64,000 nt of DNA from Gyromitra esculenta (lineage: Eukaryota > Ascomycota > Pezizomycetes > Pezizales > Discinaceae). The translations under genes were made by a program, and so were the position numbers. This document shows, piece after piece, positions 11,077-45,900 of the stretch. The DNA lies in NCBI GenBank assembly GCA_038503075.1, contig JBCAML010000001.1, positions 2,418,001 to 2,482,000 on the forward strand. Direction: 5' to 3'. How positions within the stretch are numbered: the stretch's first letter is position 1; every line of letters begins with the position of its first letter. The notes under the pieces are model-generated. The model was given only the letters and a program-made list of their open reading frames with translations, had not been told where the DNA came from and did no database searches.

Positions 11077-13053
11077 TTAGGCTTCAATGCCCACACTCCT
11101 TCCCATCTCCCTCTCCAAGATGGCATCCATCACTGGTCCCCTGCCCGTCTTCATCTCGACTTTCCTCTCGAATCTCTCACCCGAGAAACCCAGTTGTTCA
11201 TCCGTCCAGATGCTCTCCATTTCCATACCCTCTTGACCCACACCACACAGCCCTCCTTCTGCTCTCCAATCGCTGGTACGCTTGATACCCAGCTCTTGCC
11301 AGACACTTTCCAGCGCCTCCACCAGGTGTGCGCGGTAGTTCTCAGTATGCCCTGGTGTGGGGGTGATCCTCAGCCGCTCTTGCCCGACAGGAACAGTCGG
11401 GTAATTGATCGCTTGCACGTAGATGCCGTGATCCTCGAGTAAGCTATCTGAAGCCTGCCGGGCCAACTCGGCGCTACCAACAAGAACTGGGACAATATGC
11501 GATGGATTAGGGATAACTGGAATATCTCTCGCCGTTAGAGCTTCTTTAACCGCCCTCGTGTGCAATTGCTGTAGTCTACGATCCCCGTGATAGTTCATCT
11601 GGTACTGTATCGCCGCGTCCGCGCCAGCCATCGTAGCAGGGGGGAGCGAGGTCGTGAAGATGAACCCCGGGGCAAGGGACCGAATCGTATCAATGAATTT
11701 TGCGGATCCAGCAATGTACCCGCCCACACAACCATATGCTTTTCCAAGCGTGCCGGTGATGATGTCCACGCGATCCATTATTGTCCCCTCAGGCCTCCCC
11801 GCCGCGTGCGCTTCAAAATCAAGATGTTCTGCCACACCAGCCCCGTGAGGTCCGTACATTCCCACCGCATGCACCTCGTCCAAAAACGTCAGCGCGCCAT
11901 ACTTCTCCGCCAGATCGCAAATCTCTGCAATTGGGCCGACAGAGCCACACATGGAGTAAACGCTCTCGAACGCGATGATTTTCGGTACGCTGGCGGGAAG
12001 GGACGCGAGCTTGGCTTCAAGATCGGCAAGATCATTGTGTTTAAATACTAGTTTCTTCGCGCCGGAGTGGCGGATACCCTGGATCATGGATGCATGGTTG
12101 AGTGAATCGGACAGGATGACACAATCCGGGAACTTGCTGCCCATGGTGGCTAGCGTAGCATCGTTGGCAACATAGCAAGACGAAAACACGAGAGCCGCTG
12201 GTTTGGCGTGCAGTTTGGCGATGGTGGCTTCGAGACCAATGGCGTGTTTGTTGTGGCCAGAGATATTGCGAGTGCCGCCGGCACCGGCGCCGTAGGTGTC
12301 GAGGGTTTGGTGCATTGCGTTCAGCACGGCCGGATTGCGGCCCATGCCAAGGTAGTCGTTGCTGCACCATGCAGTGACGAGCTTATCGGGGGTGTCGAGA
12401 TGCGCCTGCGGGAAATCCTTGGCCAGGCGATTGATATTATTGAAGTAGCGGTAGGACTTGTCCTTGTGCTTTTTGTCGAGTTCCGTTTTGTAAAAGGACT
12501 CGTAATCGAACTTTTTGCAGGTCGGTGCGGCAGGGGGCACGACGTTGGTAGGGCGGGTGACGCGGGAAGGGGTCGGGGCGGACATGCGATCGGCGATTTT
12601 GGCGGCTTTGAGGGCGGCGGCGCCATGGGGACAGATTCCTATTGTTTCGAGTTAGCTTTCGCAATTGGCAGTGGGGGGAGAGAGAGAGCGACTCGTACCC
12701 TTCGAGGTGTCGAGAACGCCTGCCTTCAAGTGCAGAGTCTCGATGTTCGCCGCCTCGGCGCTCTTCCTCTCACTCGCCTGGATCCCCGCAGGCTTGCTGG
12801 GAACCACGTACCCCCTCTTCTGGCTCGCAATGCCGGCGCGGAGCCCAAATCCGCTGAAAGCCGAATTGCGAACGCTCTGGACGGCGAGCGCCTTGCTCAT
12901 GACGGGGCAGCGGCGGGCGACGACCTGCAGGTTCGACATAGTGCCGCCGCCAACGCTCGGGGAGGTGCTCGTGGAGAGGGCGCGGAGAGTGCTCGTGGAG
13001 GTATTCTTGAGGAACGGACACAAACGACGGGATTGGTTTAGGAGCGGCTCCAT
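11077..13053 (-). CDS. HEM1: 5-aminolevulinate synthase, mitochondrial
   Basis: This PLP enzyme of the mitochondrial matrix condenses glycine and succinyl-CoA to 5-aminolevulinate, the first step of haem synthesis. Exons 13053-12699 and 12638-11077 give 638 residues. The 60-bp intron (donor GTACGA, branch GCTAAC, acceptor AATAG) joins DTSKG to [12 protein letters not shown]. The N-terminus begins [20 protein letters not shown], a serine/arginine-rich presequence. Cys-Pro dipeptides occur in LCPFL, RRCPVM and GICPHG; in this family such motifs bind haem and inhibit import or activity. The catalytic core includes [34 protein letters not shown] and the PLP-lysine motif TGTLGKAYG near residue 413. 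The start at 13053 matches the extended N-terminus of fungal homologues. Confidence 0.95.
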
Positions 13054-15557: not shown

Positions 15558-15681
15558 TCGGCCAAATTTTCTCTTGGTGCCAAGAGAAAGATCTCCCATG
15601 ACCTAATAAGATGACGTAACCCCAAGCCCTAGGGTCGGCCAAAAATTTATCTGGGCGCCAAGCATCCAGACAGTATATAAA
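15558..15681 (+). promoter_or_regulatory. Putative U2 snRNA promoter: duplicated element plus TATA box
   Basis: A TATA box (TATATAAA, 15674-15681) lies about 30-37 bp before the inferred U2 5' end. Upstream are two near-identical direct copies of an element of about 27 bp at 15558-15584 and 15635-15662. Both start TCGGCCAAA and end with TGCCAAG or CGCCAAG, with start points 77 bp apart. Their position suggests upstream control elements of the snRNA gene. The function is inferred from position and duplication only. Confidence 0.55.
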
Positions 15682-15710: not shown

Positions 15711-15983
15711 ACCAGCTCTCTTTGCCTTTTGGCTTAGATCAAGTGTAGTATCTGTTCTTTTCAGTGTATGTTTTTCCACTCCTCCACTCCCTCATAGTTT
15801 TCTTTCGATTTTTTTTTTTGAATTCAATGGCTAATTTTATTCTTCTCTAGTTAATCTCTGAAACGGTTCTATGGAACCATTTATTGATTATACTTATTTT
15901 TGTATTTCGGGATTGGGGCTCCGCGCTTGCGCGTCCTCGACTCCACTGTGTCACCGGTATTGCACTGTCTCCGGTTGACGCGA
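15711..15983 (+). ncRNA. U2 spliceosomal snRNA gene interrupted by a spliceosomal-type intron
   Basis: U2 snRNA pairs with the pre-mRNA branch site. The 5' part (about 15711-15765) contains the conserved U2 sequence CTTTGCCTTTTGGCTTAGAT and the branch-site recognition element GTAGTA at 15745-15750, then TCTGTTCTTTTCAGT. The expected continuation TTAATCTCTGAAA appears only at 15851. Between them, 15766-15850 begins GTATGT, has GGCTAATTTT as a branch-like site and ends CTCTAG, so it reads as an 85-bp mRNA-type intron. The downstream part has a GGTTC/GAACC hairpin, the Sm-like site ATTTTTG at 15896-15902, a CGCGC/GCGCG hairpin, and a last stem-loop holding GGTATTGCACTGTCTCC, which matches U2 stem-loop IV. 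The spliced RNA would be about 188 nt, normal for U2. The exact 5' and 3' ends are estimates. Confidence 0.88.
15766..15850 (+). other. Intron inside the U2 snRNA gene
   Basis: This 85-bp insertion starts GTATGT and ends CTTCTCTAG. It carries GCTAATTT about 20 bp before the 3' end and a T-rich tract. Removing it rejoins CAGT to TTAATCTCTG, restoring the sequence expected of a fungal U2. It lies just 3' of the branch-site recognition region. It has no coding capacity of note. Confidence 0.82.
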
Positions 15984-16955
15984 CTCTTTCCTTGTTTCCC
16001 TGGCCGCTGGCGAGGGTACGAAGAAAGAGTAAGGGTGTTTTTTTTTTATCATGGCCTTTAGTGGTCTCGTTCGCTGACAAATTGTGCGATTATTATTATT
16101 TTGAATATTTGGGATTAAAAAGTCTGGTTTGAATGTATCCTCGTAAAAAAAATATGAACAAATTTCTTGAACCAAATCTGTGTCTACTTTACTATTTAGG
16201 TGTTGGGGATTGGTGTAGCATTTTTGTGCCATGAACCGACCAAGAAATTTTTGTTCGCAGCAATTTGGTTACGCTGGGAGAGACAGACAGAATAAATGAT
16301 CTGTCGTACGGTTATCCATAGTTCATCGCATGACATTCGGGAACCGTGTCTTCGCTTTCCTAACGGAACTAGTTTGCTAGATGCGGGGTATTGGAAACTG
16401 CGCGAAGATGGACGATATCATTTCGCTTCTTTTGATCACGGAGATTGCCGAGTGATTAGCTGTGATGATAAGGAGGAATAGATTAGATCTCTCGCACTGT
16501 TACCTTGTTATCTTCAGGTATGATGATGGTTCAAGTCTGCAAGAGCTGTGGCTTTACGAGGCTGGTGGTGCTATCAGGTTGCGATTGAGTCTTGTATACC
16601 ATGTTTACCAGTTGTATATCTAAACTCATTTTAGTGAAAAGAAGACATCACCGGACTCTCCTTCTCTAGCGAATACCGGGAGGGCTATATCTTGTGGGGT
16701 CGGCATAGCGCATTTCGCTATGCCTATTCTCCTTTTGATCAGATGTAGTGAGCTGAGTGGCGTGCTATGACTTCGTCATAAGTTGAACAGCCTTGAACCC
16801 AAATTTCTATTGCCCAGCATATTTCTTACTGCCCTAAATCAATTTTTTCGTTCGGTATCGCAATTATACCGCTCTTAAGCCGAAGTAAAAACAACAGAAA
16901 CAAAAAATTGAACTCAATCAAAATAGCATCTTTATTTCACACCCTCCACTAAACA
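15984..16955. other. Intergenic downstream of U2
   Basis: No protein gene was recognised. A perfect 9-bp hairpin (GGCATAGCG, loop CATTT, CGCTATGCC) lies at 16702-16724. The region between 16490 and 16760 has scattered box-like motifs (ATGATGA, CTGA), but no snoRNA could be established. Confidence 0.35.
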
Positions 16956-42600: not shown

Positions 42601-42653
42601 TGCGACAAACCCGGATTGAACGGGTGACCTTCAGATGACACCCCGGATAAAGA

Positions 42654-42684
<31 letters not shown>

Positions 42685-42690
42685 TATCGC
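42601..42690 (-). tRNA. tRNA-Phe (anticodon GAA) with a 17-nt intron
   Basis: On the minus strand the cloverleaf reads: acceptor GCGATAA pairing with TTGTCGC, D arm GCTCAGTTGGGAGAGC, anticodon stem TCAGA/TCTGA with loop containing GAA, variable AGGTC, and T arm ACCCG-TTCAATC-CGGGT. The discriminator base is A. A 17-nt intron follows the base after the anticodon, the usual position in nuclear tRNA genes. The body without the intron is 73 nt. CCA is not encoded. Confidence 0.95.
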
Positions 42691-43509
42691 GTCGCATGTA
42701 CTTTCATCCGATCTTTTTGCGCTCTAAAATTTACTCCAAGTGGGTATGGCCTTGGCGGGGCGCTAGAAGCGGTGAAAATTTAGGGTTGGCTTGGCGGAGA
42801 TGGAGGGTTTAAATAGCGACGTTGGTTCCTGAACTGTGTTGACGACACGACAACAATAGTTGGATGGATCGTGTGGATGGCTCTAGGGATAGACCGTGTC
42901 TTTTACTAGCAGAATACAGTACCTCATCGTCTGTCGGCCCGGAGACAGAACTACATGTACATATCAACGCGTGAAGAAAGAAAGAAAAACTCGATTCTCT
43001 ATTCCTCTCCCCATTCCCTCCCGATACCCAAGTCTCTATAACTCAACCCCCCCTTACCAACACTCTGGTGCAAAGCCTGATTTGTTTCGTGGTTTGTTCC
43101 TATTTTGGTGTAAGGCAGATTAAACAGACACTCTACTCACCGCGACGTCCTGACTATGTGGGCGTAGTGGTCCATTTACTGTCGTCTACAATCCACTTAG
43201 TTTTTTTTAGTTTTTCTATGTCAATAAACACATGACCTCGTGATGGTTTCTAGTAGCTTACTTATTTGTGATATGATATCTTGTACCAGACTAAGACTTC
43301 ACCTTTGACTTCAACACCACCATCACTAACCAAACACGACTATAGGACAATTATCATCAAGCAGCATTGTTATTCACTATCAATTCGGTATCATTATCAA
43401 ACCGGCCCGGTCCCTACCAATCCCAGTATCTTGGAATATTCTGCCATATCCATCTACATCCCAGTACATATAGCATCTTGCCTCATTCTACTCTACCCAA
43501 GGAAAGAGA
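42691..43509. other. Intergenic, promoter side of 43510 gene
   Basis: Contains one TACATGTA palindrome (42952) and CT-rich stretches upstream of the next gene. No other gene or RNA was seen. Confidence 0.35.
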
Positions 43510-45900
43510 ATGCTCAGCCAGAGCAGCAGATCCAGATCCGACTCTCGTCCACGCCCCATCCACGTTTCGGGCCGGAACACGAGGGTCCGCTCCTTGATCG
43601 ACTTCTACAACCGAAAGGCACTGCAGAAGTCGTTGGTAGTCACGTCGAGGCCCATTCACGACCGCCATCGAATCCCTAGTGACAAAGTGCGGTCGTTGGT
43701 GCAGAACTTTTCAAGGGCTGCATCTGCTGCATCTGGCAGTGGTCTCAGTAGCAGGAGTGGCGGGGGGGTATTGAGGGATGGCGCAGCTTCACCTGTTCTC
43801 GTTCGAAACGGAGGGAGAGGTGGAGTTTCGCCTATTGCTTTTAGGAACGGTGCGGTTTCTCCTGTTGCCCTAAGGGGACAGGCAGAGCTTCCTAATCCCA
43901 ATGATGGGATTGAGCAGGTGGGGCAGAAAGGGGGATATCAGCCCTGGAAGACTGGTGCTGGACTTCGTACAGTCAAGGGTTGGAAGTCGACCCGAACTCA
44001 GAAGCTGGAGAAATCGGAGGCGGATGAGCCTGTGGCAAGGAAATCTACGAGGAGGAAGAGGACCTCGAAACGTGCTTCTGTGAAGGATGGTGGCTCTTCG
44101 GAGGAGCCTACTCCTCCGAAATTAATCCAGCCACTCACGGCTCCGATACTCAAAGCTTTGGAAAGTGAGGTTACTAGGTCTTCCTCTCTGGAAATGGAGA
44201 TTTCTGCATCCCCGGGAGATATTGTTAGTGATGGTGAGTCAGCGGCGTCACAAACTTCGGAGTCGTCAGCGAAGAAGTTTAGGGAACAGAATAAACCAAG
44301 TGTCGAGATCAATACTACTGATTCAGAGGAAAAACTTACCAATACAGATCCTCAAGCAGATGATGCTGTAGCTAAAGTAACTAATGTAGAACAAGAAGTG
44401 ATTTCGCCACAGGCTCCATCAACTGTTTCAAGACGCTCTGGCTCTTGGAAGGGGGCGTTGAGGTCCGTAAGGGACTCTTTTAGGAAGAGGTCTTCTACGG
44501 CAGAGTCTTCCCTCTCAACCAAGCCTTTCGACGAATCAGTCGCCTCCAAGCCAAAGAATATCCAGTCTCTCGTTGACAACCTAACTCCGGATTTACCAGC
44601 TACGAGCTATCTAACGGCGCCGGATACTTTCAGGAATGCCACCCAAACCCCGATTTCTAATGTACAGACCCAGATCCAGAAACTGCAGAGGCTAGAAACA
44701 GTGAACTCGGAGTCAGAGAACGAGAACACCCTCCCGAGTGACACGGATACACAGAGGAACTTGGGTAAGTTAAATATTGATGAAGTGCTCCAGGAAGTTT
44801 CTGGACCTTCTCTTTCCCAACCTGCTGAAGACCTTGATACTATCTCTGGGATGGGCGAGATGACTTCTTGGGACAGCACTGTTGCGAGACGGAAAAAGCG
44901 TGCACGAACTTACAGAACGGCCCCGAAGCAAAGAAAGTCAGAACGTAGGCCAGTGGCAGGTGTATTTAAGTCACCCATAGAAAGACTTGAAAGCCCCCTA
45001 AAACAGGTTTCGCCATTGCGAGTTGTTAAGGAAAAGCCACAAACCACTATTCAGGAAACTAGCGAGACTATAGTCCCCGATCCTGCAGGGAGGGTGGCGG
45101 GTGAACTTCTTACTCGTGCATCAATGGATACACTTACTTCTTTTGAGGAACTGTCTGTACCAAGCCCATTGATAAGTTCAGATGAAGCACAAAAAGATGT
45201 TCAGAGTAAACGGTTATCTACGGTTATGTCAACTTTCGAGTCTTTGAGTGATCTTACCACTCCTCCTCCTGCTAAACCTCCGCAAGAGGTCAGGTCGCCA
45301 ACCTTGATGCGGGAAATGGCATTCCCTTCGCTCCGCCTTCGGGCAGATTCAGGCGATGCATCAATGGAAAAGAAGTATTCCTCAGAAGAAGCGCTTGAGG
45401 CGGCGAAACCAGTGTCGAAGCGTCAGGCAGCTACGAAACACAGCTCTGTCCCAAAGAAAAAGATTTTTGGGGATGCAGATTGGAGGACGGATCGAAATTT
45501 TGATGCTAGTAATAGTATTGAAGATGTTAAACAGAAACTACAAGAACTAGAGGAGGACACTCATTCTTCATATAGTGACCGGGGGACGGGCTCGGTATCC
45601 GGAATACAGGATATTGACTTCACGGCGCTGCCTTGGCAGAACTACATTCCCGTCTTGGAAGCTGGTGACTCGGGGGATGACTATGGAGACATGATGGAAG
45701 CAGAAGCACCGTTTTTGAAGTATACTATTAATCCTATAATTCCTATAGGGACACCTCCACCAGTCTATCCGCTTTATCAGACGAACAGAGAATTCACATC
45801 ACGACCTCTTACCGAGGGAACTTCTGTCATTGAAGTGAGAGTAGATGGGCAGGACGGAATGGTTATTAGAGGAAGAAGGAGAACAAGAATTGGTTCGTAA
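43510..45900 (+). CDS. Large intrinsically disordered protein, unknown function
   Basis: A single exon of 796 codons. The N-terminus is basic (SLIDFYNRKALQKSLVVTSR), with short near-repeats SPVLVRNGG, SPIAFRNGA and SPVALRGQA around residues 90-120. The middle is Ser/Glu/Lys-rich and includes RSGSWKGALRSVRDSFRKRS. A basic segment RRKKRARTYRTAPKQRKSER may be a nuclear signal. The C-terminus has a Pro-rich tract (IIPIGTPPPVYPLY) and ends in RGRRRTRIGS. No domain is recognised. The length without stops and codon bias support a real gene. Confidence 0.75.
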   Translation: MLSQSSRSRSDSRPRPIHVSGRNTRVRSLIDFYNRKALQKSLVVTSRPIHDRHRIPSDKVRSLVQNFSRAASAASGSGLSSRSGGGVLRDGAASPVLVRNGGRGGVSPIAFRNGAVSPVALRGQAELPNPNDGIEQVGQKGGYQPWKTGAGLRTVKGWKSTRTQKLEKSEADEPVARKSTRRKRTSKRASVKDGGSSEEPTPPKLIQPLTAPILKALESEVTRSSSLEMEISASPGDIVSDGESAASQTSESSAKKFREQNKPSVEINTTDSEEKLTNTDPQADDAVAKVTNVEQEVISPQAPSTVSRRSGSWKGALRSVRDSFRKRSSTAESSLSTKPFDESVASKPKNIQSLVDNLTPDLPATSYLTAPDTFRNATQTPISNVQTQIQKLQRLETVNSESENENTLPSDTDTQRNLGKLNIDEVLQEVSGPSLSQPAEDLDTISGMGEMTSWDSTVARRKKRARTYRTAPKQRKSERRPVAGVFKSPIERLESPLKQVSPLRVVKEKPQTTIQETSETIVPDPAGRVAGELLTRASMDTLTSFEELSVPSPLISSDEAQKDVQSKRLSTVMSTFESLSDLTTPPPAKPPQEVRSPTLMREMAFPSLRLRADSGDASMEKKYSSEEALEAAKPVSKRQAATKHSSVPKKKIFGDADWRTDRNFDASNSIEDVKQKLQELEEDTHSSYSDRGTGSVSGIQDIDFTALPWQNYIPVLEAGDSGDDYGDMMEAEAPFLKYTINPIIPIGTPPPVYPLYQTNREFTSRPLTEGTSVIEVRVDGQDGMVIRGRRRTRIGS

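What the first reader, a model, noticed from the sequence alone, without database searches (positions are those of the whole stretch)
15711..15983. U2 snRNA gene interrupted by an mRNA-type intron
The sequence directly shows conserved U2 5' sequence with the GTAGTA branch-recognition element, then an 85-bp insert with GTATGT, GCTAATTT and CTCTAG, then the exact U2 continuation, Sm site and stem-loop IV. Removing the insert gives an RNA of about 188 nt. Introns in U6 are known in several fungi, and I recall introns in other snRNAs, including U2, in a few basidiomycete yeasts. One in an ascomycete U2 would be rare. The spliceosome would need U2 to splice U2.
Basis: partly seen in the sequence, partly recalled or inferred. 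Interest (0 to 1): 0.92.

Follow-up and report, generated by a model that had tools for sequence, protein, structure and literature searches.

The report
U2 snRNA gene with spliceosomal intron
In this cup-fungus-like ascomycete, each of the four U2 genes found (U2 is an RNA that recognises introns for removal) is itself interrupted by an intron of the kind U2 helps remove, so making U2 probably needs existing U2.

Summary
Rfam U2 (RF00004) matches window 15712-15989 at 115.9 bits, with one 85-nt insert at 15766-15850: GTATGT, CTAAT branch motif, CTCTAG. Removing it restores the conserved CAGUUUAAU of the stem IIa loop.

The genome (47.1 Mb, 23 contigs; Pezizales by protein kinship) shows four U2 genes. 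All four carry an intron at this site (85, 70, 52, 80 nt; one shifted by 1 nt), and no uninterrupted copy was found. One copy has a second, 108-nt intron in stem-loop I. All four keep the U2 core, a promoter box and TATA placed as in four of five U1 loci, and a downstream hairpin with compensatory changes, so they do not look like pseudogenes. No inserts were seen in the U1, U4, U5 and U6 loci found; U3 has introns in three of four.

Best reading: functional U2 genes whose precursors are spliced by the major spliceosome, so mature U2 depends on existing U2. Splicing is inferred; no RNA data were available. A U2 intron was reported in 1993 in the basidiomycete yeast Rhodotorula hasegawae. What appears new is the ascomycete lineage, interruption of every copy found, and the second site. 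This is a new member of a known kind.

The parts
15654..15662 (+). Upstream promoter box GGCGCCAAG, shared with the other three U2 loci and four of five U1 loci (one U1 with GGCGCCCAG)
   Evidence: Starts at -58 or -59 from the gene start in all 4 U2 loci (C20 after allowing for its first intron, an 86-base shift) and at -60 in 4 of 5 U1 loci; TATATA at -38 in all 4 U2 and -40 in the same 4 U1. In the window alone the motif is not rare: 3 matches against 0.86 expected, 6 of 100 shuffles reach 3; the case rests on the fixed position.
15674..15680 (+). TATA box (TATATAA)
15712..15765 (+). U2 exon 1: 5' end, stem-loop I, branch-recognition GTAGTA (15745-15750), 5' arm of stem IIa
   Evidence: RF00004 alignment; transcript 5' end uncertain by 1-2 nt
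15766..15850 (+). 85-nt intron of U2 type: 5' splice site GTATGT 15766-15771, branch motif CTAAT 15831-15835, 3' splice site TAG 15848-15850
   Evidence: introns at the same site in the three other U2 loci
15851..15989 (+). U2 exon 2: rest of stem IIa, stem IIb, Sm site ATTTTTG (15896-15902), stem-loops III and IV
   Evidence: RF00004 alignment; between the four copies 3 pairs have changes on both sides and 2 pairs are broken in one copy each; transcript 3' end uncertain by several nt
15984..16029 (+). 18-bp hairpin at and just past the U2 3' end, probably a 3'-processing signal of RNase III type (inferred)
   Evidence: Alignment of all 4 U2 loci: 97.2% of cells paired (1 of 500 shuffles as high), 5 pairs with changes on both sides (2 of 500 shuffles; at most 2 in six slid controls); number of further pair types not unusual (148 of 500). 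Structure was derived from the same four sequences.

Best explanation
The window holds an active U2 snRNA gene, one of four dispersed copies, whose transcript is interrupted by an ordinary GT-AG, U2-type spliceosomal intron in the loop of stem IIa (between nt 53 and 54 in human numbering, recalled). Most likely sequence of events: (1) Pol II transcribes it from a snRNA promoter (box at -58, TATA at -38); (2) the major spliceosome removes the 85-nt intron, joining CAGU to UUAAUCUCUGAAA; (3) the downstream hairpin is cut and the 3' end trimmed; (4) the RNA gets its Sm ring and joins the U2 snRNP. Since no U2 copy without the intron was found, mature U2 is made by spliceosomes that already contain U2, so the particle maintains itself through inheritance. 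Anatomy, copy number and conservation between copies are shown here. Transcription, splicing, 3' cleavage and the dependence loop are inferred.
For: RF00004 match over the gathering score at four loci with the insert at the same place. Stem IIa introns of 85, 70, 52 and 80 nt with GTATGT (3 of 4) or GTGTGT (1 of 4), CTRAY starting 15-21 nt before the end, and TAG. Counting gaps, identity between copies is 52-66% for these introns and 87-94% for exons, yet the spliced sequence is CAGUUUAAU in all four, including C17 where the boundary is shifted by one base on both sides. A second intron, 108 nt, GTAAGT/CTAAC/CAG, lies in stem-loop I of C20 only, and its removal restores GCCUUUUGGCUUAG. Promoter box and TATA placed as in 4 of 5 U1 loci. 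Downstream hairpin with 5 compensated pairs. No uninterrupted copy. Two frame-restoring introns of the neighbouring ValRS gene have like signals (GTATGT, CTAAC, CAG; GTATGG, CTGAC, TAG). U3 carries such introns in 3 of 4 copies found in the same genome, a known fungal class (PMC5832005, passages read).
Against: No RNA evidence: splicing is not observed. The assembly may be incomplete, so a missed intronless copy cannot be excluded. Leaving gaps out, the contrast is weaker: intron identity 71-88%, exon identity 90-94%, though short T-rich introns align well by chance. The full-length RF00004 match at C20 is partly spurious: its first 16 or so model positions fall in intron 1, and the true exon 1 was placed by identity to the other copies. 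Relatives could not be examined, so conservation between species is untested. Because the stem IIa intron sits in a loop, an intron-bearing U2 might keep some function, which would weaken the dependence claim.
Confidence: 0.92

Rival explanations
1. The window locus is a U2 pseudogene that took an insertion; another copy supplies U2.
For: Several copies exist; dispersed snRNA pseudogenes are common in eukaryotes (general knowledge). A possibly decayed U1 copy exists here (C2, 38.5 bits, no box or TATATA found).
Against: 4 of 4 U2 loci carry the intron, so no intact donor was found. Promoter box, TATA and hairpin are kept at all four. Exon changes between copies mostly keep pairing: 3 pairs of U2 and 5 of the hairpin changed on both sides, against 2 U2 pairs broken in one copy each.
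Confidence: 0.03
2. The insert is kept in the mature RNA as an expansion segment of stem-loop IIa, so U2 here is a long variant and no splicing occurs.
For: The insert lies in a loop, and yeasts tolerate large U2 expansions elsewhere in the molecule (general knowledge, recalled).
Against: Ends are splice sites with a branch motif in 5 of 5 inserts. Length varies freely (52-85 nt) while the termini and the joined sequence do not. C20's second insert would split stem I. The minimum-energy fold of the unspliced window RNA lacks stem IIa as drawn for the spliced RNA, though such folds are weak evidence.
Confidence: 0.03
3. The insert is a recently mobile intron or introner-like element that hit U2.
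For: Sequence-similar, propagating introns are known in fungi (stwintron paper, seen only as a search listing with the start of its abstract).
Against: Neither the window intron nor the C20 stem-I intron has another match in the genome at E<=10 (the tool skips simple repeats; the other three introns were not searched). Three of the four introns at the shared site look descended from one old intron: 7 of 8 bases just before the branch motif match between C8 and C17 (10 of 1620 control pairs do as well), 6 of 8 for C1 with each; C20's does not show this (the stretch was chosen after seeing the alignment).
Confidence: 0.02

Closest known systems
Intron in the U2 snRNA gene of Rhodotorula hasegawae, now Erythrobasidium hasegawianum (Takahashi et al. 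1993, Mol Cell Biol 13:5613; only the reference was seen, in PMC2586383; content recalled)
   Same: An mRNA-type intron interrupts a U2 gene. As I recall, it lies just downstream of the branch-recognition region in the 5' domain.
   Different: A basidiomycete (Pucciniomycotina). As I recall, one intron of about 60 bp. Here: an ascomycete, four copies all interrupted, one with a second intron in stem-loop I. The exact 1993 site could not be compared.
Introns in fungal U6 snRNA genes (Schizosaccharomyces pombe and others; Tani and Ohshima 1989, Canzler et al. 2016; references seen in PMC5832005; papers not read)
   Same: A spliceosomal RNA gene interrupted by the type of intron it helps to remove; the same self-dependence.
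   Different: Different snRNA. In this genome the two U6 genes found are uninterrupted.
Introns in fungal U3 snoRNA genes (PMC5832005, passages read)
   Same: Spliceosomal introns in a small structured RNA, in the 5' domain, with short branch-to-acceptor distance; present here in 3 of 4 U3 copies found.
   Different: U3 is not part of the spliceosome, so there is no self-dependence, and an intronless U3 copy exists here.

Membership tests
U2 spliceosomal snRNA (RF00004) | Covariance-model score over the gathering score, full length | tested here: met
U2 spliceosomal snRNA (RF00004) | Branch-recognition GUAGUA, Sm site, stems I-IV | tested here: met
   Sm-like stretch AUUUUUG in three copies and AUUUUUA in C20. 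The consensus fold adds a 9-bp helix over the branch-recognition region that is not part of the Rfam model.
U2 spliceosomal snRNA (RF00004) | Expressed, capped, assembled with Sm and U2-specific proteins | not testable with these tools
   no RNA or protein data; promoter and hairpin conservation only
U2-type spliceosomal intron | GT-AG ends, 5' splice-site hexamer and branch motif like those of mRNA introns of the same genome | tested here: met
   5 of 5 introns; compared with only two frame-restoring ValRS introns and three U3 introns
U2-type spliceosomal intron | Removal restores the conserved host sequence exactly | tested here: met
   4 of 4 copies give CAGUUUAAU at the stem IIa loop; C20 intron 1 removal restores stem I
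U2-type spliceosomal intron | Excision seen in RNA | not testable with these tools
   no transcript data
Minor (U12-type) intron | ATATCC or GTATCC 5' splice site with TTCCTTAAC branch site (motifs recalled) | tested here: not met
   The five introns carry GTATGT, GTAAGT or GTGTGT with CTRAY. RF00007 gave no match, but that call's control was empty, so absence of U12 is not shown.
U2 intron as in Rhodotorula hasegawae | Same insertion site | not testable with these tools
   paper not held
snRNA pseudogene | Loss of promoter and of paired structure; intact source copy elsewhere | tested here: not met

The most novel reading that the evidence does not exclude
Every U2 gene of this fungus is interrupted by an old intron that only a U2-containing spliceosome can remove. 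The U2 snRNP is therefore a self-propagating machine that cannot be restarted from DNA alone and must be inherited through every spore. The intron has been kept through gene duplication, with a one-base boundary shift in one copy, and one copy gained a further intron within the U6-pairing domain, as expected if introns enter U2 by reverse splicing at the spliceosome's own core.
Probability: 0.5. Interest if true: 0.75.

Novelty: new member of a known kind. Interest (0 to 1): 0.62.

Why it matters
Introns in spliceosomal RNA genes have been taken as natural evidence for intron gain by reverse splicing (recalled), and they create a machine that must process its own parts. U6 cases are well known, while for U2 I know of a single 1993 report from a basidiomycete yeast. 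A four-copy U2 family in an ascomycete, all copies found interrupted at one site, one slid by a base and one with a second intron, gives a system in which age, sliding and gain of snRNA introns can be traced. It also allows a test of whether a cell can make U2 without U2.

Tried and rejected
Intronless U2 elsewhere: searched four ways; the single junction-like hit (C14, 3 mismatches) lies in a tRNA-Phe gene, across what by inspection is its intron. Introns in the other snRNAs: the loci found for U6 (2), U5 (1), U1 (5) and U4 (4) are of normal length. All five U1 matches are below Rfam's gathering score, and the tool scores only its best candidates, so an interrupted further copy of these genes could have been missed. 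Minor-spliceosome escape route: RF00007 found nothing, but the call's own control was empty, so this is not evidence of absence. Mobile intron: no further copies of two of the five introns; the other three were not searched.

Comparison with related fungi: not possible with the collections at hand. Viral contigs gave no exact U2 match. The prokaryote genome collection gave four matches on three contigs, by their sequence eukaryotic contaminants; 4 of 4 continue past CAG with UUUAAU or CUUAAU and no insert; none is known to be a near relative. De novo mRNA intron set from the window: a scan for frame-joining GT-AG stretches with a CTRAY motif gave 142 candidates (8 on reversed controls), of which 9 had GTRNGT and 3 distinct ones also YAG; too noisy for a consensus, so I rely on the two ValRS introns and U3. 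The ALAS and the orphan gene used as guides turned out to be intronless over the aligned stretch. Folding of the unspliced RNA is only weak evidence. Downstream hairpins of single loci do not stand out from mononucleotide shuffles for the four U2 loci (z -0.4 to -0.8); the case for the hairpin rests on covariation among only four sequences, with a structure derived from those sequences. I first read U4 on C11 as decayed; its fold shows a downstream hairpin and two other U4 loci also lack the exact box, so I dropped that.

Full report
What is there. The window (contig C1, 2418001-2482000, of a 47.1-Mb genome in 23 contigs) carries a U2 snRNA gene on the plus strand at about 15712-15989. Rfam U2 aligns over all 192 positions at 115.9 bits, gathering score 46. 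The alignment has one long insert, in the loop of stem IIa, whose exact limits are 15766-15850 (85 nt). The insert begins GTATGT, has CTAAT starting 20 nt before its end and ends CTCTAG. Joined exons read UUUUCAGU|UUAAUCUCUGAAA, which restores the Rfam consensus CAGUUUA. The gene lies between a 5-aminolevulinate synthase gene (minus strand, 11080-13053) and a valyl-tRNA synthetase gene (minus strand, ORFs from 17339 upward), so the insert is not part of a known protein gene.

Which organism. Among hits that name a species, the 5-aminolevulinate synthase is nearest to Morchella sextelata (85%), Tuber borchii (82%) and Rhizina undulata (81%); the three best hits, up to 94%, name none. An orphan protein has 17 hits, one of them named, Maublancomyces gigas (59%), of Discinaceae, Pezizales. 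The genome is therefore most likely a Pezizales ascomycete; the species is not known to me.

All U2 copies found. RF00004 finds four loci: C8, C1 (the window), C20 and C17. A 33-nt exon-1 probe and a 36-nt exon-2 probe with up to 3 mismatches each find the same four and no others. The uninterrupted junction with up to 3 mismatches is found once, with 3 mismatches, and that place is a tRNA-Phe gene. So 4 of 4 U2 genes found are interrupted at the same site. The introns are 85 (C1), 70 (C8), 52 (C20) and 80 nt (C17). C17 uses CAG|GTGTGT...ATAG|TTTAAT where the others use CAGT|GTATGT...TAG|TTAATC: the boundary is displaced by one base at both ends and the spliced product there is the same. C20 has a second intron of 108 nt (GTAAGT, CTAAC starting 23 nt before the end, ACAG) between the two G of GCCUUUUGGC in stem-loop I. 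For C20, Rfam's model laid its first positions on this intron; the true 5' end, 86 bases further up than the model's start, was placed by identity to the other copies.

Are these real introns? All five inserts have the three signals. Over the window, 3 of 639,210 segments of the same lengths do, and the U2 intron itself is one of those 3. Identity counting gaps is 87-94% for exons against 52-66% for the stem IIa introns; leaving gaps out, 90-94% against 71-88%. The exon joins are exact in all copies. Two introns of the neighbouring valyl-tRNA synthetase gene, set by the restored reading frame, have GTATGT/CTAAC/CAG and GTATGG/CTGAC/TAG. U3 snoRNA in the same genome has such introns in 3 of the 4 copies found, and the fourth shows the uninterrupted site; U3 introns are a known fungal class (PMC5832005, passages). 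That paper says that U3 and U6 were so far the only small structured RNAs known to be often interrupted by an intron.

Are the genes alive? All four have GGCGCCAAG starting 58-59 bases and TATATA 38 bases before the gene start (for C20 after allowing for its first intron). Four of five U1 loci have the same pair at -60 and -40, one of them with GGCGCCCAG. In the window as a whole the box alone is not rare (3 matches, 0.86 expected), so the fixed position is what counts. Next to the 3' end all four have an 18-bp hairpin; 97.2% of cells pair (1 of 500 shuffles as high) and five pairs changed on both sides (2 of 500 shuffles; at most 2 pairs in six slid controls), while the number of further pair types is not unusual (148 of 500). 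The structure was derived from the same four sequences, and single-locus folding energies do not stand out from shuffles. Within U2, three pairs changed on both sides between copies, while two pairs are broken in one copy each. For contrast, the fifth U1 match (C2) scores 38.5 bits and shows neither box nor TATATA; it may be a decayed copy.

Other snRNAs. The loci found for U6 (2), U5 (1), U1 (5, all below Rfam's gathering score) and U4 (4) are of normal length without inserts. U2 is thus the only spliceosomal RNA seen interrupted here, within what the search would show.

How it most likely works. Shown: anatomy, copy number, conserved signals. Inferred: Pol II transcription from the shared snRNA promoter, removal of the intron by the major spliceosome, 3'-end release at the hairpin (in yeasts an RNase III does this for U2; recalled), assembly. 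As no intronless gene was found, mature U2 would be made only where U2 already works. The stem IIa intron sits in a loop, so an unspliced RNA might keep part of its function. The C20 stem-I intron would split a stem and separate the two U6-pairing stretches (recalled anatomy of U2), so that copy should need splicing more strictly (inference).

Origin. The 8 bases before the branch motif match in 7 of 8 between C8 and C17 (10 of 1620 control pairs reach this) and in 6 of 8 for C1 with each (40 of 1836 and 67 of 2295); C20 shows no such likeness. The stretch was chosen after seeing the alignment. This fits one intron older than the duplications that later slid by one base in C17, but is not proof. 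Neither the window intron nor the C20 stem-I intron has relatives elsewhere in the genome; the other three introns were not searched. Both sites lie in the first third of U2, which pairs with U6 and the branch site; two of two sites there is weak support for reverse splicing.

Known or new. A U2 intron was described in 1993 in Rhodotorula hasegawae; I saw the reference and the sentence citing it in PMC2586383, and the paper itself is not held. From memory, that intron lies just downstream of the branch-recognition region. The species is now Erythrobasidium hasegawianum, a basidiomycete. Ten searches of the open-licence PMC library showed me no report of U2 introns in an ascomycete; that library lacks most subscription papers, one long result list was seen only in part, and I saw no more than listings for all but two papers (PMC2586383 and PMC5832005, passages). 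The kind is known. This instance, with every copy found interrupted, a second site and a slid boundary, is new as far as I could see.

Noticed in passing
L012-L015 (U1), L017-L020 (U4), L032-L033 (U3), downstream 80 bases: A hairpin of like build follows 4 of 5 U1, 4 of 4 U4 and 2 of 4 U3 loci (by eye in the folds; z-scores range from -0.1 to -4.7), which suggests a common 3'-processing signal of these genes in this fungus.
   Followed up: partly
L004 (C17 U2): The C17 U2 copy is the most diverged: the stem I loop reads AAUU instead of UUUU, and stem IIb has a C-A mismatch, while the branch-recognition region is unchanged. It may be a U2 isoform.
   Followed up: no
L016 (U1 on C2): Low-scoring U1 copy (38.5 bits) with neither the promoter box nor TATATA; possible pseudogene.
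   Followed up: partly
L030-L033: U3 snoRNA: three of four copies have an intron in the 5' domain, one is intronless at the same site.
   Followed up: partly
42601-42690 (-): tRNA-Phe (GAA) with an insert in the Rfam alignment that looks like a tRNA intron; a second tRNA-Phe gene, on C14, by chance resembles the spliced U2 junction across its intron.
   Followed up: yes
43048-43191 (+): Match to snR80, an H/ACA snoRNA (44.7 bits, gathering score 40), just upstream of a long orphan ORF 43510-45900 whose only named relative in the search is from Maublancomyces gigas.
   Followed up: no
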